A stretch of DNA of 64,000 nt from assembly GCA_963924555.1 (NCBI GenBank), contig OZ004582.1, positions 9,519,927-9,583,926 of the forward strand, read 5' to 3'. How positions within the stretch are numbered: the first letter of the stretch is position 1; each line of letters begins with the position of its first letter. The translations under genes were made by a program, and so were the position numbers. Below are positions 11,299 to 62,402 of this stretch, piece by piece. The DNA is from Crambe crambe. Lineage: Eukaryota; Porifera; Demospongiae; Poecilosclerida; Crambeidae. The notes under the pieces were generated by a model. The model did not search any database and was not told the DNA's origin. It was given only the letters and a program-made list of their open reading frames with translations.

Positions 11299-11338
11299 CT
11301 TAACCAATAAATGGGTGTGGATTGTGATTTAAGCTGAA

Positions 11339-12694: not shown

Positions 12695-13050
12695 TGACAT
12701 TATTAATGTGGGTCAAAGGTTGGGGCTGGGAGATTTAGCTACAACTTAGAAAATTTTTCAGACTCTATACTGCATAGCAAGGTCTCATACAGTTTATACG
12801 CCATGGCAGTCTCTTTTGCTTTGTTATAGTCTCTCTATTAAGAATCTGTTGGTTGCTGGACTGTATTACTGTCCATATTGCACACAGGCCCTGGCTCACA
12901 AGACTGGCTGTTGAAAAGGTAGCCATCTCCTGCTTATACAGACAACTTTTCAAGCAAGGGACAAGTGTGTCTTGAACAAATACAGGGCTCATGATGATTT
13001 AGCTACATAGTGGTATTTTACACTTCATCCTCAACAAATCAGCATGAAAA
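12695..13050. other. Intergenic between convergent GT14 genes
   Basis: About 350 bp without a supported gene. An open frame on minus at 12765-12992 shows no family features and is probably chance. Confidence 0.4.
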
Positions 13051-14565
13051 TTATTTAGCTACACAATCTTTTCTATACTCTAACTTGTTTCTGGCCACTA
13101 TTCTCTCCTCCATACACTTCATAACCGTGTGATCCACCTTCATGAAGTACTTGTTGTGAAAAAGATAGGTTCCTCCTTTCACCACATTTGACAGATCACC
13201 TGCTGCAACTATACATACAGTGTGACGTACCATACCACGGCAATGGTACTTCCGTTTACGTGTCCAGAATGCTCCTGAAACTGAAAAATATCTGTTTCTA
13301 GGGATGCGTGGGTTGTATCCACCTGGTACTCCAGGCATCATATACACAGTGGCATAAAAGTGCTCCTCTGAACTCTTGCAATTTTTGAAGAAATTGTGTA
13401 TCTTTGAAGCATTTTCATTGAATATGAGATAGTTTGCCAGTTCCAATGAGATGGCATTATACGATGAACTCTTGTAGAGTTGAGTGTCATTGAATGGAGG
13501 GTTACCCAAATTTACATGACGGCTAATTGCTATTTTATTACCCTTTTTGTTCAGTCCTACTTTGTGTCTAATCCTGTCACTAAACCTTCCTGCCTTGTAT
13601 GCAAAGATTGATGAAGATCCATTTAGCTTCATAAGTCGTGTCACTATTTCTCTGTTGGTCCTCAGGGGAAGTTCCTTCCCACATAAGTTAATCACATACT
13701 TCCATTTGTGTTCCTGTTTGGCTCTCAGCTTGAGCAGATCGGTCATGCAGTCCATCTGAGCTTCCATTATGGTATAATACCCCCATACCACGTTCTCCAC
13801 CTTTGAGGGATTAATTACATTCTCAAAACAATTAGCAATCTTCTGGAAGAAAGCTTTGTGTGGAGATTTGACATCACAGTGGATGCAGTAGGAGTTTTGA
13901 GGTCTGTAGAGGAGACGTAGTAATCTGAGCACCTGCTGGGGACTATCATACACCACAAAAGTGAATGCTATAGGAAAAGACTTCTCCAACTTAGAATTGT
14001 ACAAGTTGTCGCTGAAGTAGTCTCTAAGCCATGAGCAGTTTTCCATCTTCCTCATCAATTCTTTATCCGATAAGGCATTTTTCCATCCTGACATGGCAGA
14101 CTTGACCCTATTTATTTCTTTTTTATCTCTAGATATCACTCTGCTGCAGTTGACAGGAATTTCAGGTTCAAGAGAGGTCACTACCCCTTTATCCCACGCT
14201 CTGAACCCTCCAGAGGGGACTTGACATTTCTCTTTATTACTATACTGTTTTACCCTGTGGTTGTAATACGAGTACAGAGTGCTGCCTGTCCAGTTGCTAA
14301 GTGAGTTTTGCACTCTTCCACTCTGTAAGGTATGAGTTAAGTCAGTTTTCCTGCTGGCAGAATCAACTCTCATTTCCTTGTATTGAGTATAGAATGTCCC
14401 TTCTCCTCTATCAGTGTAGTTATCTCCAACTGACCTTTGGTAATATGTATAAATGCCTTCATAGTTCATTGTCCTTCTATAAAAGTAAGGTACCAAAACT
14501 GTGACAACCAGCACCATAATGATTGTGACTATGTATGAAGTCTGCACTCTCTTAGTCCAACTCAT
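13051..14565 (-). CDS. GT14 glycosyltransferase-like protein, copy 4
   Basis: Single exon, 504 residues, ATG at 14565 (MSWTKRVQTSY). The signal anchor is at about residues 10-29 (IVTIIMVLVVTVLVPYFY). The stem is longer than in copies 1-3 (about 90 residues) and rich in Tyr, Ser, Arg and Thr. The catalytic domain carries VNCSRVISRDK, FPIAFTFVVY, YCIHCDVKS, INLCGKELPLRTN, EEHFYATVYMMPGVPGG and FHNKYFMKVDHTVM. It is closest to copy 5 over the catalytic domain. Stem and anchor are unrelated in sequence to copy 5, so only the enzyme part is shared. A probable relic of a gene like this one lies at 10783-11165. Acceptor specificity cannot be read from sequence. Confidence 0.88.
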   Translation of the reverse strand: MSWTKRVQTSYIVTIIMVLVVTVLVPYFYRRTMNYEGIYTYYQRSVGDNYTDRGEGTFYTQYKEMRVDSASRKTDLTHTLQSGRVQNSLSNWTGSTLYSYYNHRVKQYSNKEKCQVPSGGFRAWDKGVVTSLEPEIPVNCSRVISRDKKEINRVKSAMSGWKNALSDKELMRKMENCSWLRDYFSDNLYNSKLEKSFPIAFTFVVYDSPQQVLRLLRLLYRPQNSYCIHCDVKSPHKAFFQKIANCFENVINPSKVENVVWGYYTIMEAQMDCMTDLLKLRAKQEHKWKYVINLCGKELPLRTNREIVTRLMKLNGSSSIFAYKAGRFSDRIRHKVGLNKKGNKIAISRHVNLGNPPFNDTQLYKSSSYNAISLELANYLIFNENASKIHNFFKNCKSSEEHFYATVYMMPGVPGGYNPRIPRNRYFSVSGAFWTRKRKYHCRGMVRHTVCIVAAGDLSNVVKGGTYLFHNKYFMKVDHTVMKCMEERIVARNKLEYRKDCVAK

Positions 14566-15717
14566 ATCTCAGCCAATTTAATTCAATAGCTATAGTACAT
14601 AGTGATGAGCTGAGAAACAGATTTGTGACTGAGGAATGAACCATTTCCTGTTTCCAAAGCCTTCCGAAAACACTGTGGGACTAAAAGTTTGAATAAATGA
14701 CCACAAAAAGTTATCTTAATTTATCATGTACATTGTGTAAAAACATTGTGTAAACACATTGTGTAAACACATTGTGTAAACACTGGAGCTATGCCCTGGC
14801 GATTCAAAGTGGCCACTTAAACCCTAGAGAAGAGCAACAACAGCCATGATCCATGGCTATACCATCCAGTATGGTATGAAGCTACAGTTTATGCATGGTT
14901 ATACTATAGCTGCTGTGTCACAATAAACGATGGTAGACTATAAATTTTATAAGCATTTTTGTTGAGCATAATAGGATAGGGGCTCTTGCATTAGAGCATA
15001 GCATAATAGGAAGTGGGGGAAAAACTAATTTGCATGTGATGCATGACCAGGCCCGTACGCAGAATAATGAAAAGGGGGGTTACTAGGTTAATACACATGG
15101 AAAACCACACCCATGACCACACTTTAGAACAAAAATTAATTAGAAATCAAATGATAAACTCACATTTTCCATTCTATGTGGACGTTTCTTAAGGAAAAGT
15201 TTGCACACTTCATCTATATTAATTTTATGTATGTACATCATGTGCATACATGGGTACATGGACAGTCAGAGTGAAGTGACATGCATTTGTGTAGACATGG
15301 AACTGACTGAGTGTAATCAAGGGCACATTGAGCTAGCCAAGAAGCAGCATGCAACTAACTTCTTCATCTTTTTGAAAAATATGACTGAATTGTAGTATTT
15401 GTTCCCTTCATTTTTTTAAACTAAAATGCTCAATCATGTAGCTAAACTAGTTAGATGGCAGCAGCAGCATGAGATAAAGTCATGTGATTGTCACTGTTAT
15501 GAATATCGTTACTTTCATGAATATATAGCCAGTCAGTCATGCACCATCACATAATAGTTATAGCTACATGCATGGCTCCAAACCTAGCTAGCTATAATAT
15601 TCAGGTTTTGTCACATGAAGCTGTAGCTACTCTGCACATAAAGGATCTAGGAATAGGACCTGTTTACATAATATTTAGTAGCTAGGTGATAGTCTTAGAG
15701 GTAGCTACCTGTAATGA
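14566..15717. other. Intergenic between GT14 copies 4 and 5
   Basis: About 1.15 kb of AT-rich DNA. It contains a four-unit 15-bp tandem repeat (14728-14784, unit ACATTGTGTAAACAC) and many CTAGCTA words around 15580. The open frame 15201-15395 has no recognisable features. No gene is supported. Confidence 0.5.
14728..14784 (+). repeat. 15-bp tandem repeat
   Basis: The unit ACATTGTGTAAACAC is repeated about four times in a row, the first copy slightly altered. Confidence 0.8.
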
Positions 15718-17277
15718 TTATATTATACACTCTTTCCTGTACTCTAACTTGTTTCTGGCCACTATTCTCTCCTCCATACACTTCATAACTGTGTGATCCA
15801 CATCCATAAAGTACTTATTGTGAAAAAGATAATTTCTTTCTTTTGCCACATTCAACAGATCACTTGCTGTTATAATGCAAATATCATGACGTACCATGCC
15901 ATGGCAGCGATACTTTCGCTTCTGAAATAATGCAGTAGATTTCGTCCAGAATGCCTCTTCCACTGCAAAATACTCATCTCTAGGGATGCGTGGGTTGTAT
16001 CCACCTGGTACTCCAGGCATCATGTACACAGTGGCATAAAAGTGCTCCTCTGAATTCTTGCACATTTTGAAAAAATTGTGAATCCTTGAAGCACTTTCAT
16101 CAAATATGAGATAGTAAGCCAGTTCCAATGAGATGGCATTATATGATGAGCTTTTATAAAATTGACGGGCATTGAATGGAGGGCTAGTCAATCTTTTATC
16201 ATGTTGTACTTTTATTCTATTACTTCCTTCAATCAATTGCACTTTATATTTGATTCTCTTCATAGCTCCTCTTGAGCCTGCAATTCTCTTTGTAATGATT
16301 GATGAGGATCCATTTAGCCTCATAAGTCGCATCACTATTTCTCTATTGGTCCTCAGGGGAAGTTCCTTCCCACATAAATTAATCACATACCTCCATTTGT
16401 GTTCCTGTTTGGCTCTCAGCTTGAGCAGATCGGTCATGCAGTCCATCTGAGCTTCCATTATGGTATAATACCCCCATACCACATTCTCCACCTTTGAGGG
16501 AGTAATCACATTCTCAAAACAATTAGCAATCTTCTGGAAGAAAGCTTTGTGTGGAGATTTGACATCACAGTGGATGCAGTAGGAGTTTTGAGGTCTGTAG
16601 AGGAGACGTAGTAATCTGAGCACCTGCTGGGGACTATCATGCACCACAAAAGTGAATGCTATAGGAAAAGACTTCTCCAACTTAGAATTGTACAAGTTGT
16701 CGCTGAAGTAGTCTCTAAGCCATGAGCAGTTTTCCATCTTCCTCATCAATTCTTTATCCGATAAGGCATTTTTCCATCCTGACATGGCAGACTTGACTCT
16801 ATTTATTTCTTTTTTATCTCTAGATATCACTCTGCTGCAGTTCACTTTAACTTCAGGTTCAAGAGAGGTCACTACCCCTTCACTCCAAGCCCTGAACCCT
16901 CCAGGGGGGACTTGACATCTATTAAGTGTCAATATCTCATTCACCTCTTTCTTCCAGTTGTCTGAAGTGCCACTTCTCCAACTTGTGTGGAGGCTTTGCA
17001 GGGGTCTCTTTCCCCCACTATATGAGGTAATATTCATGTTTGTTCTCTTGATTGGTGAGGTTGAATTAATTGACTTTTCTTCTGTATGATAATATGGTTC
17101 ATATATGAGTCCTTTTCTTCCATCAGGTGAGATTGCAGTGATAGGATCAGAATTATTTCCCTTTTCATCATACGCTTCATAATTGCTTGGCACCCAATAA
17201 GAATAAGTTGCCACAATTATTAGAGCCAGTATCATACTGAAGATATAAGAAACCAGCACTGCCTTGACCCTTTTCAT
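15718..17277 (-). CDS. GT14 glycosyltransferase-like protein, copy 5
   Basis: Single exon, 519 residues, the longest of the array; ATG at 17277 (MKRVKAVLVSY). The signal anchor is at about residues 6-28. A stem of about 100 residues leads to CQVPPGGFRAWSEGVVTSLEPEV. The catalytic domain has VNCSRVISRDK, FPIAFTFVVH, YCIHCDVKS, INLCGKELPLRTN, EEHFYATVYMMPGVPGG and FHNKYFMDVDHTVM. A variable, basic insert (about residues 330-365: RIAGSRGAMKRIKYK...) sits after INLCGKELPL, where the paralogues differ most. In GT14 structures the region after this motif helps to shape the acceptor site, so these copies may differ in acceptor use. That is inference. Confidence 0.88.
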   Translation of the reverse strand: MKRVKAVLVSYIFSMILALIIVATYSYWVPSNYEAYDEKGNNSDPITAISPDGRKGLIYEPYYHTEEKSINSTSPIKRTNMNITSYSGGKRPLQSLHTSWRSGTSDNWKKEVNEILTLNRCQVPPGGFRAWSEGVVTSLEPEVKVNCSRVISRDKKEINRVKSAMSGWKNALSDKELMRKMENCSWLRDYFSDNLYNSKLEKSFPIAFTFVVHDSPQQVLRLLRLLYRPQNSYCIHCDVKSPHKAFFQKIANCFENVITPSKVENVVWGYYTIMEAQMDCMTDLLKLRAKQEHKWRYVINLCGKELPLRTNREIVMRLMRLNGSSSIITKRIAGSRGAMKRIKYKVQLIEGSNRIKVQHDKRLTSPPFNARQFYKSSSYNAISLELAYYLIFDESASRIHNFFKMCKNSEEHFYATVYMMPGVPGGYNPRIPRDEYFAVEEAFWTKSTALFQKRKYRCHGMVRHDICIITASDLLNVAKERNYLFHNKYFMDVDHTVMKCMEERIVARNKLEYRKECII

Positions 17278-18319
17278 ACTTTCACTATGTAGTGATACTG
17301 TGAGTTATATCAATAGCTAGCTTAAGTAGTTCTAGCTATGACTTAGCTGGTTGCATGATTATAGACTTAATGAATTTATTCTACATTCCTCTCCACACAT
17401 GTGGTTGCCACTTTTGTATATAGCTGGCTATGTGGTGGAATTTCACAAGTTGCTAAATGTAACTAACTAAATACCTGTCCACCTCCTCAAATTGGATGAG
17501 GAAGGGAGGCTATTTTTTATTATTTATTATACTAGGCAATGTGCAAGCAGTTCAGCTGGTAGCTACTTGTTCGTGGTAAGGATCATTAATTTTATAAATT
17601 TAACGCATAATTAATATTAATCAGGACCGGTTATCAGCATTATATGGCTTCAAGTAAGTATGAAATATGCGTATTTTACTAGCTATATTATAGCTCAGAT
17701 CAGACATTAACCCCTTGCTGCGCATGCGCATCGAGGCAATGAAAGTGCAGGTACTAGGTTGGCACACCTGTGTGTGTATAGGTGTACTTTGCACACCTGG
17801 TGTGTCTGGGATCACAATTCAGTGTGCAGTGAAACCTCTCTTAGCGGACCCTCCAGTCCCAGAACTAGAAGCAGATGACCTCAAGCACCGATTGAACTTA
17901 CCATAGAACTAAAACCTCCGAGAAACGGACTACCTCCGAAGCCGGCCATAGCTAAGCTGTCAGTCCAGTAGCAGATCTTCTTGGAAGCAGATGAACATTT
18001 GAATATAGAAACTGAAGCACATCACCTCCTTCACTGAGTTTTAAGGAAAGAACTCATTCAGGACTACTTTTCTAAACAATTCATCAGACACTCAATTTTT
18101 TTTGCATGGAAACAATACACAATAAAGTATAACCTCCAAGATAAGGACAACCTCTGAGATAAGGACAAAGGTCTTTTCCCCCATGTGTCCTCTATTTACA
18201 CTGTAAAAAGAAATGTGTAAAAACAACCCATAATTGAAACTCAGATAAAAATAGGTTGTTTTTATTACCTCCTTTTGAATGCCACCCCAGTAGCTAGCAA
18301 TTTAGAAAATAAGCTCTAG
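17278..18319. other. Intergenic between GT14 copies 5 and 6, with degenerate pogo/Tigger-like repeat
   Basis: About 1 kb without a gene. From 17827 (GCAGTGAAACCTCTCTTAGC) to about 18205 it holds phrases typical of the CAGTGGAACCTC repeat family of this window: ACCTCCGAGAAACGGAC, ACCTCCAAGATAAGGACAAC and TGTGTCCTCTATTT. It looks like one large, decayed, non-autonomous copy. No transposase frame is visible. Confidence 0.5.
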
Positions 18320-19711
18320 CTAGCTACTACAATCTTCCCTAAACTCTAACTTGTTTCTAGTTACTATTCTCTCCTCCATACATGTCATAACTGTGTGATC
18401 CACCTCCATGAAATACTTGTTGTGAAATAGAGATTTACTTCTTCTCACATTTGACAGATCAGATGCTGTAATGATGCATACATTGTGATATGTTACATTA
18501 CCAAGACAATTATACTTCTTCTCTTGAAAAGAGTTAGATTTTGTCCAGAATGCTTCCTCTACAGAAAAATATCGATCTCTTGGAATATGTGAGTTGTACC
18601 CACCTGGCACTCTAGGCAACATGTAGATGTTTGCATAGAATCCTTCCTCTGCGTTTTTGCATCTTTTATAGAACTCATGAAAATCTGATACACTGAAGAC
18701 AAGATAATTTGACATTGCTGCTGAAATGGCATTATATGAGGAGCTCTTATAAATTGAACGCCGGCGGTAAGACTTTGAATACCAATTCCTAAATTGTGCT
18801 GTGGTTTTTCCAGGTGGTAATCTGCGCTTGCATCTAGTCAGGCCTTCTCTATCTTTACGAGGAATCTTGAAAGCTATGATAGATGAGGCTCCATTCAGCC
18901 TCTTAAGTTGTGTCACTATTTCTCTGTTGGTCCTCAGGGGAAGTTCCTTCCCACATAAGTTAATCACATACTTCCATTTGTGTTCCTGTTTGGCTCTCAG
19001 CTTGAGCAGATCAGACATACAGTCCATCTGAGCCTCCATGATAGTGATATAACCCCAAACCACATTCTCTACCTTTGTGGGATTAATCACGTTCTCAAAA
19101 CAATTAGCAATCTTCTGGAAGAAAGCTTTGTGTGGAGATTTGACATCACAGTGGATGCAGTAGGAGTTTTGAGGTCTGTAGAGGAGACGTAGTAATCTGA
19201 GCACCTGCTGGGGATTATTATGCACCACAAAAGTGAATGCTATAGGAAAAGACTTCTCCAACTTAGAATTGTACAAGTTGTCGCTGAAGTTGTCTCTAAG
19301 CCATGAGCAGTTTTCCATCTTCTTCATCAACACTTCATCTGATAAGGCATTTTTCCATCTTGATATGGCAGGCTTGACTCTATTTATTTCTGTTTTATCT
19401 CCAGATATCACTTTGTTGCAGTTAAGAGGGATTTCAGGTTCAAGAGAGGTCACCACACCTTTATCCCACGCCCTGAACCCTCCAGGGGGGGTTTGACAGT
19501 CAATATCTGTTGTTGTAATATTGTAATCTTCTTTAGTGGCTTCTTCATCGATAATTTGTGAACCAACATCAGCGTTATCAGCTTGCAGACCACTATCTTT
19601 CCCTGACACTCTGCTTGCGCTTGAATAAGATATCCAGTAGGAAGCCGCTGTTGATACCATGACAACGATAACGAATATCGCAGAAAGTATCTTCAGTGCT
19701 TTAATAATCAT
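18320..19711 (-). CDS. GT14 glycosyltransferase-like protein, copy 6
   Basis: Single exon, 463 residues from the ATG at 19711 (MIIKALKILSA); the open frame has a GTG three codons earlier that I do not use. The signal anchor is at about residues 7-26. A stem of about 50 residues, rich in Asp, Ser and Thr, precedes CQTPPGGFRAWDKG. The core has LNCNKVISGDK, FPIAFTFVVH, YCIHCDVKS and INLCGKELPLRTN. The active-site block reads AEEGFYANIYMLPRVPGG, where the other copies have EEHFYAT and PGVPGG. The likely catalytic Glu is kept, but His, Thr and Gly beside it are changed. Activity or specificity may therefore differ. Confidence 0.87.
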   Translation of the reverse strand: MIIKALKILSAIFVIVVMVSTAASYWISYSSASRVSGKDSGLQADNADVGSQIIDEEATKEDYNITTTDIDCQTPPGGFRAWDKGVVTSLEPEIPLNCNKVISGDKTEINRVKPAISRWKNALSDEVLMKKMENCSWLRDNFSDNLYNSKLEKSFPIAFTFVVHNNPQQVLRLLRLLYRPQNSYCIHCDVKSPHKAFFQKIANCFENVINPTKVENVVWGYITIMEAQMDCMSDLLKLRAKQEHKWKYVINLCGKELPLRTNREIVTQLKRLNGASSIIAFKIPRKDREGLTRCKRRLPPGKTTAQFRNWYSKSYRRRSIYKSSSYNAISAAMSNYLVFSVSDFHEFYKRCKNAEEGFYANIYMLPRVPGGYNSHIPRDRYFSVEEAFWTKSNSFQEKKYNCLGNVTYHNVCIITASDLSNVRRSKSLFHNKYFMEVDHTVMTCMEERIVTRNKLEFREDCSS

Positions 19712-34749: not shown

Positions 34750-37700
34750 ATGGCTGCATTTCACTCTCAAGTGCTATGGATGACTGTGGTAGCTATGGTT
34801 CTCGGGTGGCCTGTTAATGCGGCTGAAGGTTTCAGCGGTGCAACAGAAGACATCTCCACTCCATCACTGGAAATAATGGAGTCAAGTACAGTTGCTATGT
34901 TACTCTCACCAAGTGTAACTCCAGAACCGCTTGAAGACAATCCCTTTCTCATGACTGCAACCCCTGAGGTGGAAAATTCTTCCACTACTGTGATAAATGT
35001 TTTCTTTGCACTAGAATCAACCGAAATCTTCCCTGAGCCGACATCTTCAAGTTCAATTGCTAACCCTAGCTCAGTTTTACCCATTTTCTCCAGCGCCCCT
35101 GTCATTATAACAGCTACTGAAACCTTTCCCGTCTCATCAACATCAAGTGACATGTTCTTTCAACCATTAGAACCTACTGTTGAACTTCAGCCTTTCTCCA
35201 TTGCCACTCCAACTTTAGCCAGCAGTGAAGAATTTGATATCTTGATGCCATTCTCCAGTGCATTTTCATCTCTGTCCACTAGTGAACTGAACCCAAGTTC
35301 ATCCTTCAATGAATTTCTTCAACCGTTTGCCACAAGTGAGATGAATGATCTTCCATTGAGTACCCTCTTCCACTCTATCCCAGCCCCCAGCCCTCAACCC
35401 TCATCACTACCCCCAGGTGACATCACACCTCATCCAACTGATGAGTCTTCAGATCTCCAAACAGATTTCTCAATTCTTCCGAGCTTTGAAGTAACGGATC
35501 TTAGTGATGTCCCAACCTTCACATCACCACTTTTCCTGGAACCTACTTCCACTCAATTGAATGCAATTCCCTCAGATTCTCTAGCTGAAATGTTACCTTC
35601 AATTTATAGTGTTTCCACCTTACCACAATTCACTTCTCCCTCATTAATATCCTTTCCTTCTCCAGTGAGTTCTCCATCACCACATCCCCCTCCATCACTG
35701 CCTCTCTCATCTTCACTTTTGATGGCAACACCTTCTAGAACACGGAGCACACTTGTGGACGAGTTACTCCTCACTCCTAGCAGTGGTTTGAGCACATCAG
35801 ATGACGTTGATATCGTATTTGTTACTCCCACTGAAAGTTTGAACTTAGTCCCTGAATCTTCAGCTCAATTCTTGACTGTTCAATCCACAATTTCATCAAC
35901 AAGCATTAATCCTGAGAGTATGATTCCTACATCATCCTCAATGGAGGATCTGCTGATACTACCAACACCTGAAGCCAATTTCAGCATTGCTGTGTCACCG
36001 ACATTATCGATAGCTCCTTCTGAAGTAATGTTATCTTCAGCTTCACCATCCACACACCCCACATCTCAACTTGTTGACTTCATGCCGTTATCAACACAAG
36101 CTATTCTACAACCTTCTCCTGTAACATCATCCCCAGAAGCTCCCAGTCTCATGTCCATTCTAACTCTCCTTCCAACCAGTGAAATTCAACTAAAAGTGAC
36201 TTCCCAGGCATCCATTCCTCTCTTGACCTCAACTCTATCAGACAACATAGCTGGAGCTTTGACTACAACCATTCCACAACCTTCTTTTTCAGTAGAACTT
36301 ACTTCAGATTTGCCACTCACTACTTCTTCAACAGGCAGACACTTGTCCAGTTCAGTTCCTCAAAGTTTTGAAGTTTCAATGAATGTCATTCCAACATCTC
36401 TTGATACTACATCAACACCAATCGCCCCAACCCCAACCACCACCGCAAATACAATTCTCATACCTTCGTCTCCTTCACTCAGTCAGGGAGATCTCATCTC
36501 CATGTCATCTGTAGCTAGAAATCTCACCAGCAGTCTCACAGACCTGCCCCCATCAGCCCTAGTTACAGACGTGGCTTCTCCACTCAGTGTAACTGGAGAC
36601 ATAACTCCCACACGAATGATAACAAATGTCATCAGAATTACCCTTGACACTTCACCAGATGTTGTCGTACCCACTACCACTGTGCTTAGTATGACCACTT
36701 CCCCTGTCATCTCTCTCCAGGAGTCTCTTCCTTCCTCCTCCTCCCCCCTTGTCGCTTCACCTCCCTCCTCGTCCTTTGTATCCCTCCCTCTATCTCTCCC
36801 TATAACAAATCAGCCATCATCCAGCAGACAAACACCCCTATCTTCATCTTCTTCTCCTGTAATCCAGTTTTCATCTATTGGAGAGATATTTTCAACATCT
36901 CTCCCTCAGATTAGCCAATCTTTGGTGACTCCCTTGCTAACTACTATCCAACCACCTCTTCTAACTACTTCATCTAGTGTTCTTGCCACACCCATTGCTA
37001 CTCCCACCCCCTCCCTCTCCCCCTCTCCATTCATTTGCCCCTCCTTCCATACTCCAAGCATCCCCATAGGCCAGACGCAATTTGTGGACATCGGGTTAGC
37101 ACTGATTTCCTCCGAACACTCTGCCTTAGTTGTACCCAACCATCCAAGAAGATGCAGCCTTGAGGCAGCCATGGTTGATGTCTTCCTACAGGGACTTGAA
37201 GCCGACCAGGGGATTGGTAGAGGACGGAAAAGGAGACAAGTCAGGAATCCCAACTATGATGCCGATGTGAGTTGTTGTGGATTGGTTTTATTGTAGATTA
37301 ATGGTGGATATGTCAACTTTATCCTTTTATTGGGCCGACACCTTGCAGTGGTTGAAGGTATCAGGTTCCCGATGGGGTCATAATAGTGTACGTTTGTTCA
37401 CTGAAGTATGATAGCCTCCCATATAATATTGTGTAGTTAATATTATTTCTTTGGTCATTGTGTGATCCATTTTCAAGTAATGATTGATTTATGATTTCAA
37501 GTTCTTGGGCATATAATGATATGGAGGAAGTGATGGGATGCTTTGTTAAGCACGATAATATCAGAACAAATTACATAATATGTCGTAACAATGCCTAGCT
37601 GCTTTGGCATGTAGAGGAGCTAGTGATGATGAATCTTTGCTATTTAGCTACCTGAGTCGGTTCATCTTTATTATTGTCTCTTTCTTGTATCCACAGATTT

Positions 37701-47298: not shown

Positions 47299-47462
47299 AT
47301 TTTTATAATCCCAATTATTTGTATAATGTACATAAACATGTGTACCAATAATTAATATTGCGCGCGCTACTATTGAGATGACGTAATCCATAACAATAAC
47401 TTGCTGCTGACTCAGCGAAATTAGGTGTGGTTTGAGGAGGATTGTTGTCAGAGTTCAATTCA

Positions 47463-49794
<2,332 letters not shown>

Positions 49795-50321: not shown

Positions 50322-53300
50322 TCATGTCAAAGATGTCCTATTAAGAACTGAAGAACTGCTAGATGCACTCCTGGTAAGGCCTCTGAAGATAGAGCGTCCC
50401 TGAACGCTGGAGAGATTCTTGGTGCTGGAGGAGGAGTGAGACCTTCGGATGCTATTGCGTGGCTCCACCAGGTGGGAAGTAGCATGCAGGTCGTCCTCTG
50501 TGATGAGTTTGTGTCCAAGCAGGTGGGACTGGAACTCAATTACTGTGTGAAGTTTGTATCGATCTTTCTGGTAGTGATGAATTTCCTCTAATAACTTGTA
50601 TACCTAAAAAAAAAAAAAGGGCTTACATTAATGACTTGCCATGATTATTCAAACCTGTCTTCGCTTGTGTATGTTGATGAGACCCCCTCGTAAGTAGTCA
50701 GGGTTACCATCGCATATAAAAGTGAGATCTTTGAGGAACACGCCCACATAAGGGACAGCTGGAACCTCTGTAGCTGCAAGTCGGTCACGATAGTGCTTGT
50801 AGTTGCCCTGGAGGTGGGGAGGAGGAAAGTAACCCTCTTTCCACGTTAATGGGAGGGTTCTACTCACTTTGGAGTCCAACATGCTGTCCATTTCTTTGAA
50901 GAGTTCCATGTCTGCCTTGGGGACGTCCCTCCAAGTGAGTTGTAGCCTGCGTATAGGGGCTGAGCCCAATCCTGCTACCACGATGGCCATCATTGAGCTG
51001 AAGTTACCTAACTCATAGCAATACTAAAGGAGGGGGAGGGGAGGGAAAGATTAATTGATATTTGATTTTCTTTCAAACGTTCATGAGTGTTGTTACCTTG
51101 GCAATGCTTATGAACCTTTGTATGGCTGCAACTCTCTCATCCAAAAACTCAAACTGTAAAATGGAGTCAGCCACCCAGTTCCCGACCTACAGATTATAAG
51201 CAAAACAGTCATGTGAAAGTCATGTGATAAAGTAGTGGTGTTAATTGTCACCTGATTGAATCTGAAGGCGAGTTTCTCTACAGCTGTCTCCATCTCAGCA
51301 TCAACCATGGAGGCTCGGAGAGTACTTGTGGAAGTGATGGAGTCTCTCTGTTGCTGGGAGGATGTCTTAGGGATCAGATGCACTTTCTGTAACAACTCTG
51401 TAGCAGTCAGCTCACAAAAACGCTCTAAAGATAAAAAATAATGTGCTGAAATTTTTAATATCCCATACATACAAGAATCTTACGCACGTTGTGCAATGAT
51501 GCTCATTTGTCGTGCAACTTCCAATGGACAGCTCAAAATGTCTTCCAACCTGCATAGGACAATACACATCATTGATTGCCTTAGGGCTGATACAGCAATG
51601 CAAACTCACGTTAGAGATTTGAGGTTGATCTCGGGAGGAATTTCAGGATCTGGAGGGCAATCACAAAAGAGTAGCTTCTCACTGCCCAATATAGTCATGT
51701 GATCAGCGAGATCTGTTACAAGAGAGTCGTCACGGGAAAATGCCTTGAGGGTGTCTGATTTATGCGAGAGTAACATTTCCACGTGCCCATTGGGAGGCGT
51801 TGCCATCATCCCTTCTGCTGGAGATGAATTTTTAAGCATATCGTAGGACAATAGCTGTCCGGGGGGCGTGGTTTCCCTCTCAGTGGGGGTATGTTCAGCA
51901 GTGGAGATGGAGGAGTCAGTATCAACCATTCCTGGCTCCACAGACATTGTAAAGAGGGAAGGGACAGAATCACTCCAGCGAAGTGGAGTCTCATCAAGCT
52001 GAAATGGATCATCATTATTAATTGGAATATTATAAAGAGAGTAATTACCATTCCCTCTCCTTCACGGAGATCCTCTATGATGTTTGCCACTTCCTTAGCA
52101 ACACCTGCAGAATCAACTTGAATTTTGAACCCGGCTGCATCACCACGGAGATTGATGACAAGGATGCAGGGGTCACTCTCACGAGTGACATTCAACACTG
52201 ACTGCAAACTATGACTTGTTATCAAATCCTGCAAGTGCACAAAACACAAGAAATCAGCATTCAATTCTTACATGATGAAGTCCATAGCTAGAAAACGAAT
52301 ACTAGAGTAATACATTAAAAATTGGTCATTTCTTGACATCAAAGTGCTGACCTTTGTCTTTTCATCCAAAAACACAATCCTCTTATTATTTATCCCCATC
52401 AGTTGCTTAGCAACAGGTGCCCTCTTGAACCTGCCCGAGGATGGTACTTTGACATTAAAGAAAGAACAGTCGTAACCCGGGTTGGCTTGGCAACGCTCAA
52501 TGTATAAATGTTTGGCATTGCGTTCAGAGAGTTTCTCAAACTCAGCTACTTGCGTCTTCACACGTTTGATGATATTCTTTGACTTTGAGAAGCCAGGAGG
52601 GAAGGCTGATTTGAATCTGGACGTTCTTCGCCTGCTATGGCTAGGAGTACTTGGGGAGCCACCAACTGGACCTCCAGAAATATCCTGAATTGATAAAGTA
52701 TTAAATCTTCCATGTAAAATAATGTTGGTGAGCAAGGCTTACCTCAATGTGCAGCTGTAGGGAAGCCATGAAGATTGCTTGGTGGACTGTCACTGGCAAA
52801 TGACCCCCTGTGACCATTTGCTGACACTAAAATGAAAATGATGACAAGATACATTCAAACAGTCTTTTTCATGTAACAGACATGCATACTCACCAGTCTG
52901 TATAAGTTGTCATGGTGAGGAGGTCGGTTCTCATTCTTTTCCAGTAAGTCTACTTTCTCTGTCCTGGGACGATCTGTATCCTGAAGCAGTGACCTGCAAG
53001 TCATTATCACAATGATAAAAATATCACAGGACAGATGCATGAGCTTAATGTCACCTCAAGCGATGAGTGTGTGGAATGTAAGGCCCTCGAGCTAATTTCA
53101 GACGACCTATGACCTTTTCTAGTTCTTCCTTTAGTGATGGATAGTTAGTAAAATCATCAGGGAACATCTCCAACCATTGACCAATCAGATTCAAGATATT
53201 GATCTGTGTGGGTGGCACTGACACTAGGTGAGTAGTGGTTGGGGTGGAGTCAGCTTTATTGGACCAGTCGAACAGGTTTAACGAGTCGTTATACGAAAGG

Positions 53301-54586
53301 CGATGAAGAAGAAGTCGCATAAAGATGAGAGGATGGACAAAGGACTTGTATGTGGTGAGGAAGAACTGGAGGATCTGGTCCTTGGAGGCATGGAGGGTGG
53401 GCAAGGACTCGCTGTCCTGTGGCTGTGGTCCTACCATCAGAGAAAAGCCACCCCAGAGGCTGGAGCAATCGCTTGTCAGTAATTCCACACACTTCTCTAT
53501 GGTAGCACCTCTGAAAAGAACAGAAAAAAAAAATCAAAAAAGAATCAAAAATCATTTTTTCTGTAGCACATAAATTGCTGACCTTGCATAGGTGTGGCCA
53601 TCACTATTGGTACTCTGTATCACAGTGTCTGTCTCATATCCCATGGCAACAGGGTCAAAGAGACTGCACCCAGAAAGGAAGTCAAGGTGGCCGAGGTAGA
53701 CCAGTGTTCTGGTAGCATGGTATCGGGGGCGTGGTCCATGGAACAGTAAGGACTGCAACTTCTTCACCAAATTTAACTGCCGGAACTATAAAAACATGCA
53801 AATACCTCTAATAACAAGGCATTAACACTTCATGTTACTAAATGGTGAGGTATGCTGGAATAAGTCCTGTTCTCATAAATTTTCTATTCAACTTACCAGA
53901 GAGTGACTCATTGTATTCTGTGCAATATTGGCAAGGGTTATGAGGGTGTTGGTCAAGTTTTCTTGGGAGGGGTCTGAGATGCAGTTGGCTAGGAGAGACA
54001 CTGCCCTCTCGGAGGACAGAGAGAGCTGCATCTTGGAGTGGGAGCTGGACACTGCCAGCATCTTTAGCACGATCCTCCGAGGGTCCAGGTCAGGGGTCCT
54101 GTGGGCATGTATGGGGGGACTGGAGGGGAATACATAAAGATACCATGCTTCCTTTCCCTCCCTCTAATTCTCTTCTCACCTGAAGACACTTTGTGCACTG
54201 CTGCTCTCGCTCGTCTCACTGTTAAAACTAGAACTCCTTGGGCCGGAGGGCCTACGGGGAAGCCCCAGGTAATTAGAGCTACCCATGCCCACACCCTCAT
54301 CAGTGGCAGTGCTCATAGCATCTGAGCTGTATCTTGTTTCCATGGAGATATTTGTATCCCTGCGAACCTGATGATTTGTGTTACTGTTTTCGTAGCCACT
54401 ATCGGACTCCCCAGGGTCGTATCCCTCCAGGTACTGAAGGAGGGGAGCCGTGGGAATTCGAATAATGGTACGCAGGTAGTCATTATCATCATCGCTCACA
54501 AGAAGGTTGTTCAAGAGAGAGAGACAAGTCTCCTAAAAAGAATAAGAATATGTATGTATGTGTATGTATGTATGTATGTATGTATG

Positions 54587-54617
<31 letters not shown>

Positions 54618-57600
54618 GTATGTGTTTCTTACAGGAATTGGGTCCCTGGTCTGTAGGAGTTTGATGGTGAGGTCAAGGACTCCTGAGCCAAGGGCAGTCT
54701 TCTTACCCTCTGCTCCCCCGGACTGGTAGATGTTGTAGATGAGAGTGGAAATCAGCCTGAGAACTTTGGGTGTAGTAATCGGGCTCTGTGCTATTTCCAG
54801 CATCCTGTGTGATGAAAAAGAGGTTGGGCAATTGAATGCGTTGGTTCTAGTGGATGCTTACTGCAGGACTTACTTAGAGACACATTTCGGTAGACATATG
54901 TGGGAGATGAGACTGTTTAGACATTCCTTATTGGAAGACAGAGTTGTCATCACAATGAGGGCATTCAGACACTCGTCCTTGGGCTTACTGCCACGCCTCA
55001 TTCCTAACGTGCCTCTCCTTGCCACTCCTCCTGATCCTCTCCGGGTGCTGTCCTCCTTGATTGCACCAGTCCTATCATCCACCAGATCCTCCAAACTGGA
55101 TGGACTCATTTTAGCTTTTCCTTGTCCATGGGAAGGGGTGTTATTTTCCGGCAGGGATAGTTTTCTTCGCACACCCTCTTCTTGTATAACAGGAGGTGTG
55201 GCATTGCTGGAGGTGTGGGCAATGGAAGGGGTGGGGTTTGAGGGTGGATTGCCTGCAGTGAATGATTTACGACGTGATTTGAAGAGAGGAGATCCGATCC
55301 TCTTTATCACTGCCAACTTTGACCTCTTCTTCTTCAAAGGGAGTGTCCCAAACACCAATTCTGCTTCCATTGAGCCCGCCCGAAGACTGGTCCCATCCTT
55401 TTGCTCCTCCCCCTTGTTCAGACTGGCTGATGACGATGGTCGAATGAGATCTCGCCTCTTTGGGAGGTCACTGGACTTCACCCTTCTCTTTGTAAGGCTC
55501 AAACGAATGCGATTTTTCTTGTCACGTGCAGATTCTGATTCTTTTCTCTTTCCTTTTATTTTGGTTCCATTTCCAATCTTATCGTCTTGACTGGAAGCTT
55601 CTTTTTTGGACTGGGGAAGAGGGGATTGATCTCGAGAATGAGAAGATAATTCATCCCGAGACGCAATCCCATTCTGAGGACTTGTAGATCCAATTTGCGC
55701 TAGAATCTCATTGAAGATGGCAACAGTTTCTTCCTTGGAGCGTTGCTCCATGAGCGGGGAGGAATCTGCTGAGAGGTGATGGGGCAGGCGGAGCTGTTGG
55801 GCCAAGTGATCCGACAGAACTGCTGACTCAGCCACTTCCAACTCATCGTCATCACTCTGCAGAGGTTAATAGTGTTTTGCATTTGTAGCTAGCAAGCACT
55901 AAATGTACATTACTTTTACTACCTTTTGGAAACTATCTCTCTTTATCTCTTCCTGTAGAATATCGAATGCTTTGCTGAGTCGTTGGATACTCACATCATC
56001 CGTTTCCTCATCCTCCCTCAATGTACCTGAAATATTTATCATGGTGATGAGCATGGCAATGGTATTGTCATGGCAATGACAATGTCATGGTGGGCATGTT
56101 ACTGTGGTTGTTTTTTAATTCACCATGGAGGAATCTGAACAAGACTGGCCCTTCCCCCCAGGATTACATCCTGAATGCAGTGTCAGCTCAATTGAGGGGT
56201 GGAGCTGAGAGGATCCTGCTTGGTGGGAGTGGACTTGTTCCTAACTAGCAAAGCTCTGCCAGGTGGAGAACAAACAGCAGCTGGGGGATCTTAAGTATTG
56301 TTATGCCACTGACACAATATCATGGTAACAGTAACACAATACACTACATACCAGAGGAACTTCCAGAGTCCATCCTGAACTTTTTCACACCATCACCCAG
56401 CAGTGCTTTGACCCGATGACTTTGCATGATGGCAGCAGATGAGAAAGGTCGAGGAAAGTCACTCTCAGCAAATTCCTCTAAATAGGTCATTATAGTCAAT
56501 ACAGTACAAAACCTCTAGCCCCAGTATCAAGTACCCACACACCTCGGTGGAGATCTGGTTCACTAAGAGAAAGCTCTAGATCATTCTTGACATCCTCCTC
56601 CCCTTCCCTGGTCCCATGTCCCTTCTCAACTGCTTTGCCAGCTCGTATCAACTCCCTTAGTCCCCTCAATGTCTTCTCCTTGTTGTGCAGGATCTCGTAG
56701 TAGGTGGAGTCAATCGAGAAGTCTGAAGGATATCTTAGTCGCTCCTTGCGAATCAATTCATCCTCCTCTGCCTCTTCCAAAAGCTCCATCAGGTTGCCAT
56801 GGCTACGAGAATGTCCCTGGGTCATTGATTTTCTGAATTTCTTTCTAGCATGTGCTCGACTAGCAATCACTTTGGCCCGCAATGTCACCATGTCCACGAT
56901 TTGAGCGAGGTCATCATCACCGCCAAGGGGACTGTCCCACGAGTCCTGTGATCCTCCCATGCCTAAGCTGGAGTCGGGTCGGGATGAAGACGGGCTGATC
57001 GAGTTTGGAGTACCACCTTGAGGGGAGGGGTCCTTACCCCCGTCTTTAAGAGGGGCAGAGACAAATGTCTCACATGCTGATGTTACTAGACGATTCAACG
57101 TTTCTTTCAGCTCCTAGAACAATATTAACAAAGGCATTGACTATAGAGCTTACATTCTGTTCCCTAAAAATTGCTAACATAATCCTATTGGAGTCTTGCA
57201 AGAGAATAACTCACTGGATTGAGGTCAAAAGGTCGGAGTCCTAGCACATCAGAGGACATGATATGAGCACCAAACTCAAGGAGAGAAATGGAACATTCCA
57301 TCAACTCCATCTGCGCTGATGAAAAATGAAGAGGGGTACGTCTGCCGAGGGAAGGGAAATGATAAATGTTTTCTGGTTTTCTGCACAAGAACTCTGACCT
57401 CATTAAGTCTAGACTGTTTACATCAGCTCCGTGCCTCAGGAGGGTCTGGAGGATGGCGGTGTTGCCCTCAGCAACAGCTCTGTGGATGGGCTTGCAGTCA
57501 TTCCAGCCAGCAGCTTCCAGTGATGCATTGCTAGAGGAAGACGGGCAAGTCACATGATAAAGTCACATGATAAGGGAGGGGTCACATGATTAAGTCACAT

Positions 57601-60600
57601 GCAGTGATTGGAACTGACTTGGCACAGAGTATCTTGACACTTTGTAGTTGGCCTAAGGCGACTGCGTAGTGGAGCAAGGTATTGCCTCTATTGTCATGGG
57701 CATTGGCCAAGCTGCCAAGGTTCATGTAGCTACTAAGGAGGGAAGAGTCACCATTTCTCATGGCCGACAAAGAGTCTTCAAAGATGTTGGAAGGTGTTAG
57801 AATCCGTCTAATAAGGTAAGGAGGGGTGGTGAGGATGAGGCTGAGGTATGTATGAAGGGAGAGGTACTCACCTAGCCTTATCTTGGAGGTCGGCATTATC
57901 TTCCTGTATCTTCTTAATGGCTGCCTGTAGATGTTCCACCTTGTTTTGCTGAGTGAACTCTCCTTGAGTCACCCCGAGCTTCCGCTTTGCCTTGTGTTGT
58001 GGGGGGAGGGCGGAAGAGGAAGATGAAGAGGAGTGGTCCGCTGGCAGGTTGGAGCCAGTGAGGGATGTGTTGCTGGAACTCACTTCTCCTGATGTACGCT
58101 GCATTAATTAAGACAGGAGAACAGTCACCTGGCCATCTGCTACCCCTTTATGTGTTTAGTAGAGGTGACCTTATACACGCTCAGATCCATTTTATGCTAT
58201 AATAGCTATTGTGTGTACAAATCTCCTTTAGTTGCAAGTGTCAGCCACAAGTATTGTCCAGAGGAGTGAGTCAACCATGGGGTCACTGACGTCACCGCTC
58301 TAAACTCTTTTCATGTGGCCAATTAGAGGAAGTTTGTGTTCAGCAGGGAAGGAAGTTGGCTGGATTCAGGAAGGCTAAGTCAGCTGGTAACATGGCCTAG
58401 TCAGGAGGAAGTTCAGACATTGATTTGGTGCTGCTACAAATTGTTCCTTCCTTGAGAGTTCATAGTCCATAAAGGTGGCCAGCTTTCATGGGCATATGCA
58501 GTACATCACATGACACCCAGCCCCTCCAGTACAGTATGTCACATGACGTCTAGCCACTACAGCCTCATACAGGTACAACACGTCAGATGATGCACTACAT
58601 TGCACACTCAAAGGTGACGCAAGAGGGTAGCCAATAGGTGCACCCCATCAAGACTTACTCCCTCAGGATGTAACGGAACCACTTGTAGGTATACACTCAT
58701 TCTATCCTGAGGTTGTCATGAACTACATAGCCTCAGGCACTAGCTGCCTACAACAGTCTCAAGGTCAATACTGGAACCTACTTAGCCCTTCCCCCATCCC
58801 CTCCTACTCACTCACCACTATGGCTGGAATAGCTCGCTTGCTGTCTCGCCTGAGGCCATGGTGCACGATGGATTTATGTTCAATCACTTCATCCTCGTCC
58901 TCCATAAACTGGAGGGGACGTCGGACCATTGCAACCTCCGAGGAAGTGGGTTTGGTCATACTGGCTCCAGAATCTGTCTTGCGAAATTTCTTGCCATCTT
59001 TGTTGGCAGTGCGGAATGCCTTCTGCAGCATTTGAACAATATCTGCAGCCTAAAAGAGGGAGCAAGGGGTTATAGCCTACAGAAGGAGCAAGGCCAGGGT
59101 TATAGAGGCAGGACATTACTGAAGAAAGATCTGAAATTAGGTCTAGACAACTATAGGCTTTCATATAGTTGATGTGGTCTTGAGTGGTCTTTGATGTGGA
59201 GGTCACAAGACCTAATGCACTGTGTCTCCATTTTGTATGCACGCATGCATAGAAACACTGCTTCTAAATATGGTCACAGCAATCTCCGAGAATGACATAC
59301 CCACAGAGAATTATCCAACAGCTGACACATGATGTTGTCAAGACAACACTTTGCAGAATCCTATGCAATTATTATGCTCTAAATGAAGATCAGGTGGTTT
59401 CTTAAGAAGGAAGACACCTGTTTACTCTCACAGGCAATTAGTGCTGCTGGAGTTATGATAGGAGAGAGTGGGACAGTTAATCAATCTAGCAATTTTGGGA
59501 AGCAGAGCAAGGACAATACCACATTCAGAAATTGATAAGGAAAAGATATTTTTTATTTACTTTACTTGAGTGGAGTTTTTTATACAGATTGGATTGCATG
59601 GGAATCACAGCTATTGAATGTGTATGTTATTACTAATCACTGTAGCCTGTGCCATGAAGGTCATTTCATGGGAATGTTCCTGGGCCTGGGCCACACCTGA
59701 CCATAATAGGACATGCATGTACTGAAATATGCACCAGCAGCCAATACCTCATGCACTATGCATTCCTGTGCAATTACCAGGAAAAAAAAAAATTCTTTTA
59801 CTCTTTAGCTAAGGAGGAGTCATGTGATCTATTCACAATGTGTAGTAACCTAATAATTATTATGATCTCACCTCTCGACTTGATTTGGCTTGGAAGGTGT
59901 GGCACTGCTTAGCATAGTGTCCAATGCTAAAGGAAATGGCAAGACAGTCACTGTAGCCTCCCTTAGTCACATCATGAACAGCCTAGCAGCGCAGATAAAC
60001 AGTATAAAAAGTGCAACAGTAACCGGGACATGCCCACATGACCACATGCATTATGTACTTGTACGATATTCACATGACCACATGTATGGTATACTTGCAC
60101 TGGCATGTACAGGAGGGAGATGTGGTCACTTCACTTGGACACTAATTTTCCTCCTATTCATAAACTTTATTATAAACCACAAATGAATTATCCTTGTGTA
60201 CAAAATATGGTCCCTGGTACAGTGGCAGTCCTGATAGTATCACAAGAAACCTCTTGATTAGACAGGTGGGGTCCATGAACAGAAAATGAAGAAAATAACT
60301 ATTCACATATGACCACAATGACGAGTGCATCACATTAACTGAAATTTAGTTTAGCATATACATGAGCAATTAGTGGCTAGGTGTGTTTTCTGCACTTATG
60401 TTGGAGAGACTTAACAACAGTTATTAATGTCTCACCTTAAGGCAAATGTGTTGAGTACATTTTGGCAGCTTACAGAATACCTCAGACTTAAGGTAATGCC
60501 AGCGTACATATAGCCCCTTATACTAGGAAAGAAACCTTTTAATGGTACTAAATTTAACCCTTATAGTGCTGTTAATAACTCTATTATGGTGTATTCTTGT

Positions 60601-62402
60601 GGTCTTGCTAATAGTATCAGGCAAACACTAGCTGTGAGATGTATAGATTATTAGACATAATGCTGAAATGAAGAGAGGATAATTGTGAAAGTTGTTGCAG
60701 TTATTACACTATGTAGGTTTTAAACTTCCATCACATACTGTGAGTGTCTCATTATTCTGTGAGATGCTGTTACAAACAAAATTCATGAGTAAATTACTCA
60801 GGGAGCTATAGCAACAGTGTTTCAACCATTAGAGTCATTATAGACCATTACAAGATAACATGATGTAGGACTTAACATACAACTACCCACTACTGGCTTG
60901 ATCAGTAAGGCTCCGAAAATAATTTCACTTTGAGGACTTTTGTAAATGGCTTTCAATATAATATCCATTAGGATGTTTCACTGACTAGGAGATTACTTAG
61001 TGGAATTGTTTGTCGTTTATTTTTCCAGGATGCCAGACAATTGGGCGAACGTTAAGTGATCAAAGCAGACGTCCATTCCACAGAGTCCACTTACAAATCA
61101 GTAACACGACACACTAGACCCAACAATGAGTGCATTATAAAACATTACTGAAAATCAAAAGGATAGGCAACTTGGAATACTATTCCCCTTCTCTTTAGTG
61201 CATATACAAAATTCATTATTTCATTGTTTTTCTTCTGAGGAGATAGCAAGCAGGTTATAGGTCAAAGGTCATGAAGATTTTCTACTTATAGAGACATAGT
61301 TCTGATTGAATTAGGAGTGAGATTTTGGCTTGGTGGATGTGATAATAATGGTGCAGGAACTCTAAATATAGCCATGTTTATTCGTCCTCCACAAAACACT
61401 GTTTTAGCCCAGGAATGGAACACCAGTGCCACTCCCCTGCAAGGTGATGTCCAAAATTGCAAGAGGGAGGGGGTTTACTAGAGAGGGAGGGGTCTACTGT
61501 AGGAAATTGTTAACTAAGAGGTGGTGCCACCGTCTATGCTTCATCAACCATGCTTGATGCAACCCCCTACCCTATTCCTTCAGCTTTGGTGCTAACACAT
61601 AGTTATTACTACTACTCATCACACTCCATTTAACTTTTGCTTTGTAGTTTCCAGGGTAACGGGGAGGACCCTGTTGATCCATTGGTAAGAGGTGATAAAC
61701 ACTTGCAGTGATAACGAGAATTTAGAAATAATGCAAAGTTTTAATAAATAAACAGTTCTTAGTTTGTAAATCAAATCTGGTCCTTGACTTACGTACTTAC
61801 CATTGCCATGGATTGGATGAGACACTCAAGGATGCCTGCTCCCGAACCCTCTGATACCCGCAGTGTCCCATTGTAAAGGGAAATGTTAACGGGTTTATTA
61901 TTAGTTAGGGCCCCATCCCTGATTGCCCTGAGGGCCCCTAGCACTTCCTTGCTTGAGCGAGGGTCCTCCACACACATGTATCCATGGTAGATCAACGAAT
62001 GGGGAAATGTGGGTGTGGTATGCTCAGAATCCAACATCTCTGAGTAGCTTTGTGATCGATTCTTGACTGCCGACGATGACGTCACTGAAGAGTTGCTGTA
62101 GGTCCTGTTGATCTTGCCAAGTTTAGAGAAACGGTTCTTCATTTTGTCCATCTTTTCTCCACGTATGTAACCTCTGGCCACGCTATCACTGTGGAAACCA
62201 GTTTGGTGGGTGGGTGTGGAGGGTGAGGGGTCAATGTCTATGGAGTCGAATCCTTCTTGCCATTTGGAGGAAAGAAAATGAACTTAGTGTAGATCTGATC
62301 CCTATAGACATGAACATAGTGAAACCTTTGGAAGTGTAGATTAGGTGTAAAATAATGTGCCTCTAGGTGGCGGGTATACTGACCCTCAATAGACCGTTCC
62401 AT
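50322..62402 (-). CDS. Giant PTB - ankyrin - ARM-like - RasGEF_N - FERM-like - RasGEF protein
   Basis: Twenty-eight exons in phase give 2,221 residues. Boundaries: 62402-62384, 62255-61801, 59982-59872, 59049-58816, 58098-57872, 57807-57619, 57530-57399, 57341-57215, 57113-56543, 56477-56352, 56026-55923, 55856-54874, 54804-54633, 54532-54180, 54098-53897, 53785-53583, 53510-53055, 52993-52894, 52826-52743, 52684-52352, 52228-52049, 51998-51610, 51549-51488, 51424-51252, 51186-51097, 51023-50868, 50807-50655, 50603-50322. Domains: PTB about 91-215 (SLIYHGYMCVEDP, CHTFQAKSSRE); coiled coil 320-348; ankyrin 365-498 (NTLLHYAVALG, PIHRAVAEGNT, TPLHFSSAQ); disordered basic linker 500-1090; ARM-like helices 1095-1335; RasGEF_N about 1403-1550 (RGATIEKCVELL); FERM-like F2/F3 about 1590-1787 (SFFNVKVPSSG, FLDEKTK); CDC25 RasGEF about 1915-2190 (LEVARQMSIIAQ, VPYVGVFLKDLTF). 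Likely activates a Ras or Rap GTPase near receptor tails or membrane. Confidence 0.82.
54548..54616 (+). repeat. (TATG)n microsatellite in a RasGEF-gene intron
   Basis: About 16 units of TATG/GTAT, with two interruptions, next to the acceptor side of exon 14. Confidence 0.95.
59983..61800. other. Long intron 2 of the RasGEF gene
   Basis: At 1.8 kb this is the longest intron in the window. It contains two CACATGACCACATG words near 60036-60090 and an AT-rich remainder. I see no exon, RNA gene or element within it. Confidence 0.5.

What the first reader, a model, noticed from the sequence alone, without database searches (positions are those of the whole stretch)
50322..62402. Single gene combining PTB, ankyrin, ARM-like, RasGEF_N, FERM-like and CDC25 RasGEF domains
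Twenty-eight hand-placed exons total 6,666 nt with every phase consistent, which would be unlikely if two genes had been merged. The N-terminal half looks like an adaptor (PTB, ankyrin). The C-terminal half splits the RasGEF_N and CDC25 modules around a FERM-like F2/F3 unit that resembles talin/KRIT1 FERM. From memory, no vertebrate RasGEF has this order. A PTB plus FERM protein could link NPxY-bearing receptors or integrins straight to Ras/Rap activation.
Basis: partly seen in the sequence, partly recalled or inferred. Interest (0 to 1): 0.85.

Follow-up and report, generated by a model that had tools for sequence, protein, structure and literature searches.

The report
Ancient Ras activator with talin-like module
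This sponge-like gene is one long, real gene for an unstudied protein of the Ras-activator family that carries adaptor domains and a talin-like module inserted into its Ras-activating half; relatives with the same design occur in jellyfish and corals, and looser ones in comb jellies and a single-celled relative of animals.

Summary
A minus-strand gene (62151-50322) rebuilds as 28 GT-AG exons, 6,561 nt, 2,186 aa: PTB - ankyrin - armadillo-like - REM - talin-type FERM F2/F3 - CDC25. It is not merged genes: 23 relatives were found, and 19 of 27 exon junctions align ungapped with at least one. Of 14 relatives scanned with Pfam, 9 show Ank-REM-FERM_M-CDC25 in order and 5 of these also PTB. The window's PTB is weak alone but scores 51 bits against relatives' profile, best of 1000 shuffles 10. 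F2/F3 is nearest talin (profile E 3e-25), then kindlin, far from KRIT1. CDC25 is nearest yeast Cdc25 and RasGRF1. No named bilaterian member was among the hits. Talin's R358-W359 pair is absent in the window and the four other sequences of its sponge branch, while 17 of 24 rows keep the W, so talin-style integrin binding is doubtful here. Best reading: an early-holozoan, receptor-tail-coupled Ras-type exchange factor, not described in the papers searched. Activity, substrate and ligands are inferred.

The parts
50322..62151 (-). Whole gene, 28 exons, 2186-aa protein PTB-Ank-ARM-REM-F2/F3-CDC25
   Evidence: (final model)
58816..62151 (-). Exons 1-4: N-terminal PTB (aa about 51-169) and start of linker; exons 62151-61793, 60480-60436 (uncertain), 59926-59872, 59049-58816
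   Evidence: profile of 7 relatives (window left out): 51.1 bits vs 10.1 for the best of 1000 shuffles; the two best of 2659 six-frame ORFs are those of exons 1 and 3 (E 0.0004 and 0.001, third 0.55)
57872..58098 (-). Exon 5: linker; junctions 4-5 and 5-6 not supported by alignment
57215..57807 (-). Exons 6-8: ankyrin repeats (Ank_2 best stretch aa 322-410, 2 stretches)
   Evidence: Pfam Ank_2 9.1e-14; tblastn with relatives
54981..57113 (-). Exons 9-11 and most of exon 12: Ser-rich middle region; block EDELIRKERLRYPSDFSI resembles P0002 and P0003
53583..54980 (-). End of exon 12 to exon 16: armadillo-like repeats (aa about 1016-1367), known through relatives
53055..53510 (-). Exon 17: REM / RasGEF_N (aa 1408-1500)
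   Evidence: Pfam PF00618 3.4e-10
52460..52993 (-). Exons 18-20: end of REM region and FERM F2 (aa 1550-1657); no F1 lobe between REM and F2
   Evidence: Pfam PF00373 7.6e-10; talin
52049..52459 (-). Exons 20-21: FERM F3, PTB/PH-like; talin-like DEKTK motif kept, talin K-R358-W359 position is L-N-V
51521..51998 (-). Exon 22 and start of exon 23: linker with a CDCPPDPE motif, similar in relatives, before CDC25
50456..51520 (-). Exons 23-28: CDC25 RasGEF catalytic domain (Pfam aa 1892-2092, similarity to about 2143); hairpin LKDLTFICDGNPDYL present
   Evidence: Pfam PF00617 5.4e-52

Best explanation
One gene encodes an uncharacterised Ras-family exchange factor from a family that predates animals. 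The C-terminal CDC25 domain, supported by REM, most likely loads GTP on a Ras-type GTPase. A talin/kindlin-type F2/F3 module without F1 sits between REM and CDC25, where Epac carries its RA domain (recalled), and probably gates the catalytic half or holds it at the membrane. The N-terminal ARH/Numb-type PTB with ankyrin repeats probably docks on NPxY-type receptor tails, and the armadillo-like repeats on a further partner. So one polypeptide would do what an adaptor plus a separate exchange factor do elsewhere. Shown by computation: the gene, domain order, relatives and domain kinships. Inferred: exchange activity, substrate, gating, PTB ligand.
Against: No RNA, protein or biochemical data. 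Junctions 4-5 and 5-6, joining the PTB part to the rest, are not supported by alignment. The window PTB is below Pfam's cut-off; Pfam finds no PTB in 9 of the 14 scanned relatives (two broken models, two that look N-terminally cut, four where it shows only by alignment, and Capsaspora, where none shows); the structure model of P0003 gave no confident PTB. Ctenophore F2/F3 is not recognised by Pfam and is 13-21% identical to the window's. The P0002 model is weak overall (mean pLDDT 55.8), with REM and CDC25 at low confidence. In the CDC25 tree 18 members group at 79, 20 only at 46; Capsaspora and P0007 stand apart, and all 22 group only with PLC-epsilon included (93). With the window alone, RGL2 and Epac2 rank just above SOS1, so Ras versus Rap or Ral is open.
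Confidence: 0.68

Rival explanations
1. The PTB exons (62.2-58.8 kb) belong to a separate upstream gene; the GEF gene starts near the ankyrin exons.
For: Linker junctions 4-5 and 5-6 have no alignment support; introns 1-4 are long (1312, 509, 822, 717 nt) while the other 23 are 50-123 nt except one of 325.
Against: PTB at the N-terminus of relatives P0004, P0005, P0007, P0019, P0021 by Pfam and visible by alignment in others; window PTB matches their profile at 51 bits; phases fit.
Confidence: 0.05
2. The F3 lobe binds integrin beta tails or other NPxY peptides as talin does, in this species too.
For: Closest fold and sequence is talin F2-F3, also in its integrin complex; R-W kept in 10 of 13 cnidarian-clade members and in P0005.
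Against: Talin K-R358-W359 reads L-N-V here; none of 5 sequences of the sponge branch has the W, and only P0002 keeps the R. Talin R358A and W359A strongly reduce F2F3 binding to the beta3 tail (PMC2958305, passages read); the same passages say that W359 is mainly structural, that the W359A fragment kept some binding, and that R358A largely rescued cells.
Confidence: 0.15
3. The exchange factor acts on Rap rather than Ras, giving an adhesion loop like C3G or Epac.
For: A module between REM and CDC25 is a RapGEF habit (recalled: Epac, PDZ-GEF); C3G is among non-family hits; Epac2 ranks just above SOS1 for the window alone.
Against: Yeast Cdc25 and RasGRF1 rank first both for the window alone and for the family profile, and SOS1 above Epac2 for the profile; the tree does not put the family with C3G or the RAPGEF2-like sequence, but holds few named classes.
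Confidence: 0.3
4. It is a relative of the KRIT1/CCM scaffold (ankyrin plus FERM plus PTB partner) with a GEF added.
For: KRIT1 also joins ankyrin and FERM (entry 5d68); weak KRIT1_FRMD8_FERM_C and Ank_KRIT1 hints.
Against: KRIT1 FERM is 20 orders of magnitude weaker than talin; no F1 lobe between REM and F2.
Confidence: 0.04
5. A catalytically dead scaffold that keeps the CDC25 fold.
For: No activity data.
Against: CDC25 profile matched over positions 1-181 of 181; hairpin motif LKDLTFICDGNPDYL intact.
Confidence: 0.07

Closest known systems
CDC25-type Ras exchange factors (yeast Cdc25, RasGRF1, SOS1)
   Same: REM plus CDC25 catalytic pair; best sequence matches of the CDC25 domain
   Different: F2/F3 between REM and CDC25; PTB, ankyrin and armadillo-like parts N-terminal, which those proteins lack (recalled)
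Epac / PDZ-GEF RapGEFs
   Same: an interaction module sits between REM and CDC25 (recalled)
   Different: there RA or PDZ-RA, here talin-type F2/F3; no cyclic-nucleotide domain found by Pfam
Talin and kindlin head (FERM F2-F3)
   Same: sequence and, on a relative's model, fold of F2/F3; DEKTK motif
   Different: no F1 next to F2 and no rod; talin R358-W359 absent in the window
ARH/LDLRAP1, Numb, GULP PTB adaptors
   Same: best solved relatives of the family PTB profile
   Different: adaptors without a GEF (recalled)
Uncharacterised relatives: Rhopilema LOC135695275, Hydra LOC100197014, Capsaspora CAOG_03360, Nematostella LOC5521422
   Same: Ank-REM-F2/F3-CDC25 order by Pfam in the first three; Nematostella by its precomputed Pfam list and alignment; PTB by Pfam in Rhopilema and by alignment in Hydra and Nematostella
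   Different: first three 19-43% identical to the window per domain, Capsaspora's unrecognised PTB region (12%) apart; Nematostella not measured there

Membership tests
RasGEF (CDC25) family | CDC25 catalytic domain over its whole length | tested here: met
   PF00617 5.4e-52, positions 1-181 of 181
RasGEF (CDC25) family | REM / RasGEF_N domain | tested here: met
   PF00618 3.4e-10, above cut-off
RasGEF (CDC25) family | Exchange activity on a Ras-family GTPase | not testable with these tools
   biochemistry needed
FERM proteins of talin/kindlin type | F2 and F3 lobes with talin-like sequence | tested here: met
   FERM_M 7.6e-10; window alone to talin-2 1.2e-5; family profile 3.4e-25
FERM proteins of talin/kindlin type | F1 lobe directly before F2 | tested here: not met
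   Pfam REM ends aa 1500 and F2 match starts aa 1550; no F1-type match at E <= 0.1
FERM proteins of talin/kindlin type | R358-W359 integrin-tail pocket | tested here: not met
   N-V in the window; W in 17 of 24 rows overall
NPxY-binding PTB adaptors | PTB domain by sequence profile | tested here: met
   51.1 bits to profile of relatives, best of 1000 shuffles 10.1; family profile to ARH 1.7e-9; Pfam PID 0.0069, below cut-off, on the window alone
NPxY-binding PTB adaptors | PTB fold in a structure model | tested here: inconclusive
   only relative P0003 was modelled; its PTB region came out mostly below pLDDT 50
NPxY-binding PTB adaptors | binding of NPxY peptides | not testable with these tools
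   needs peptide assay
KRIT1/CCM1 | KRIT1-type FERM | tested here: not met
   talin better by about 20 orders of magnitude
SOS, RasGRF, Epac subfamilies | their accessory domains (recalled: DH-PH, IQ, cyclic-nucleotide binding, DEP, PDZ, RA) | tested here: not met
   none of these in the Pfam scan of the final model at E <= 0.1; of 14 scanned relatives DEP in P0007 only

The most novel reading that the evidence does not exclude
A pre-metazoan, single-molecule link from adhesion or NPxY-bearing receptors to Ras/Rap: binding of a receptor tail or phosphoinositide to talin-related F2/F3 lobes lodged between REM and CDC25 directly switches exchange. The family arose before Capsaspora and animals split, was dropped in bilaterians in favour of separate adaptors plus SOS/C3G, and in the sponge branch of the window the talin-type pocket was reshaped for another ligand.
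Probability: 0.25. Interest if true: 0.85.

Novelty: new variant of a known kind. Interest (0 to 1): 0.62.

Why it matters
It is a conserved RasGEF architecture, found from a unicellular holozoan to corals and sponges, with talin-type FERM lobes inserted into the catalytic unit. If the lobes gate exchange, Ras control by adhesion or receptor tails may once have been built into one protein, and Nematostella or Capsaspora offer ways to test that. It would also be a gene-family loss that human-centred surveys of RasGEFs cannot see.

Tried and rejected
Self-trained gene prediction over-spliced (703 and 709 exons); stricter versions gave 20 to 34 exons for this gene and served only as a guide; the final model is hand-corrected against relatives. 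The 42-nt stretch 55994-55953 looks like a mini-intron, but its translation VSIQRLSKAFDILQ resembles P0002 and P0003 by eye, so it is kept as coding. Donor 61801 was rejected: with exon 2 ending at 60436 no acceptor tried continues in frame.

KRIT1 kinship considered and rejected. A CDC25 tree to settle substrate class was inconclusive. Supports printed for re-rooted trees were misplaced by re-rooting; one search recounts them as splits, and those are used here. P0004 and P0005 join the sponge branch at 47 only, so their kinship is open. The structure model of the N-terminal part of P0003 gave confident ankyrin repeats but no PTB. VIA-align rows did not cover the CDC25 part (rows span residues 1-772).

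Literature: ten searches; I saw titles and starts of abstracts of all papers found, except that one search listed 20 of 452 and one search listed 15 of 42. For CAOG_03360, LOC5521422, LOC100197014 and EMCRGX_G009216 no paper was found. None of the listings seen described this architecture. Passages only were read of PMC2958305, PMC7260276 and PMC4704004. The library lacks most subscription papers; a phylogeny of the CDC25 domain that I recall (van Dam and others) did not appear in it.
Full report
What was checked. The window lies in a 143-Mb, 119-contig genome without a name. The nearest named relative of the protein is from the sponge Ephydatia muelleri (44% identity; grouped with the window at 84), so I call it demosponge-like; that label rests on this protein only.

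The gene. On the minus strand 28 exons with GT-AG ends give 6,561 nt and 2,186 aa with one stop at the end. Introns are 50-123 nt except introns 1-4 (1312, 509, 822, 717 nt) and intron 10 (325 nt). Exon 2 is uncertain among five in-frame acceptors, and skipping it also keeps the frame. A 60-nt intron hidden in frame inside the CDC25 part was found because relatives lack those residues; removing it raised the RasGEF score from 159.4 to 176.7 bits.

One gene or several. Frame consistency is weak evidence alone. Stronger: 23 relatives from three database searches (7, 7 more, 9 more). Two, both from Ephydatia, look like broken gene models (P0001, P0006); P0002 and P0020 seem cut at the N-terminus. 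Fourteen were scanned with Pfam: 9 have Ank, REM, FERM_M and CDC25 in that order at E <= 0.001 (REM often below Pfam's cut-off), 5 of these also an N-terminal PTB; of the rest, P0020 has REM-FERM_M-CDC25, the two ctenophores Ank-REM-CDC25, the two Ephydatia models FERM_M-CDC25. Uninterrupted ORFs on contigs of 5.7-7.4 kb (P0002, P0005, P0019, P0020) look like transcripts (inference). Tblastn of P0002 hits the window in order from 57791 to 50460. Of 27 junctions 19 are supported by an ungapped window to at least one relative; the other 8 fall in linkers, the Ser-rich middle, or the uncertain exon 2.

The N-terminal PTB. In the window alone Pfam gives 0.0069, below cut-off; it is above cut-off in P0004, P0005, P0007, P0019 and P0021, and 7 of the 8 PTB segments aligned match PID at E <= 0.1. 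A profile of seven relatives without the window scores 51.1 bits on window residues 1-170; the best of 1000 shuffles scores 10.1; of 2,659 six-frame ORFs of the window the two best are those of exons 1 and 3 (E 0.0004 and 0.001; third 0.55). The exon 2 acceptor had been chosen with PTB relatives in view. Best solved relatives of the family profile are ARH/LDLRAP1 and Numb. The joining linker (junctions 4-5, 5-6) has no alignment support.

The catalytic part. With the window alone (before the hidden intron was removed) RasGRF1 ranks first (1.4e-26), then yeast Cdc25, RGL2, Epac2 and SOS1. The family profile ranks yeast Cdc25, RasGRF1, SOS1, RalGPS1, SOS2, Epac2, RasGRP1, RasGRP2 and RGL2. The helical hairpin motif is intact. 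This favours a Ras-type exchanger but does not settle Ras against Rap.

Distribution. Splits of the family tree (P0006 left out): the 13 cnidarian-clade members 100; window, Ephydatia, Dysidea and P0002 100; window with Ephydatia 84; P0004 with P0005 100, but their tie to the sponge branch 47; other deep splits 44 and 73. In the CDC25 tree of 41 sequences 18 of 22 family members group at 79, 20 at 46, and all 22 only with PLC-epsilon included (93). No named bilaterian or placozoan family member was among the hits, although the searches reached RASGRF2, C3G, PLC-epsilon and talin of bilaterians. Limits: candidates must share exact words and be 0.55-1.75 times the query's length, and one search scored only the candidates sharing most words. 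So loss in bilaterians is likely, not proven.

Mechanism. Shown: architecture and kinships. Inferred: the PTB docks on receptor tails; F2/F3 between REM and CDC25 gates or localises exchange; the CDC25 domain loads Ras.

Verdict. A real single gene, of a kind that the databases searched list only as hypothetical or uncharacterised, or without a name, with a domain order that none of the paper listings seen describes. New variant of a known kind (RasGEF).

Noticed in passing
window 7011-19711: Cluster of long open frames of Core-2/I-branching glycosyltransferase look: five on the minus strand and one on the plus strand (11354-12694); two of the six were scanned and both match PF02485.
   Followed up: partly
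window about 47454-49794, plus strand: Exons of a protein kinase (Pkinase 6.8e-41) that look NDR/LATS-like (label recalled), convergent with the RasGEF gene with about 530 bp between.
   Followed up: partly
window about 45.35-45.95 kb, plus strand: YhhN/TMEM86-type membrane protein exon (PF07947 8.9e-37).
   Followed up: partly
window 34750-37266, plus strand: 839-codon open frame very rich in Ser, Thr and Pro, mucin-like, without Pfam match at E <= 0.001.
   Followed up: partly
P0001 and P0006 (Ephydatia muelleri EMCRGX_G009216, EMCRGX_G032175): The Ephydatia gene models of this family look broken: one is fused to C2H2 zinc fingers, the other carries a dynein AAA piece.
   Followed up: no
P0007 (EukProt, organism not given): A divergent relative with an extra DEP domain between PTB and ankyrin repeats.
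   Followed up: no
P0024, P0025 (Mnemiopsis, Bolinopsis): Ctenophore relatives align over the whole length, but their F2/F3 is not seen by Pfam and has an insertion at the talin R-W position.
   Followed up: no
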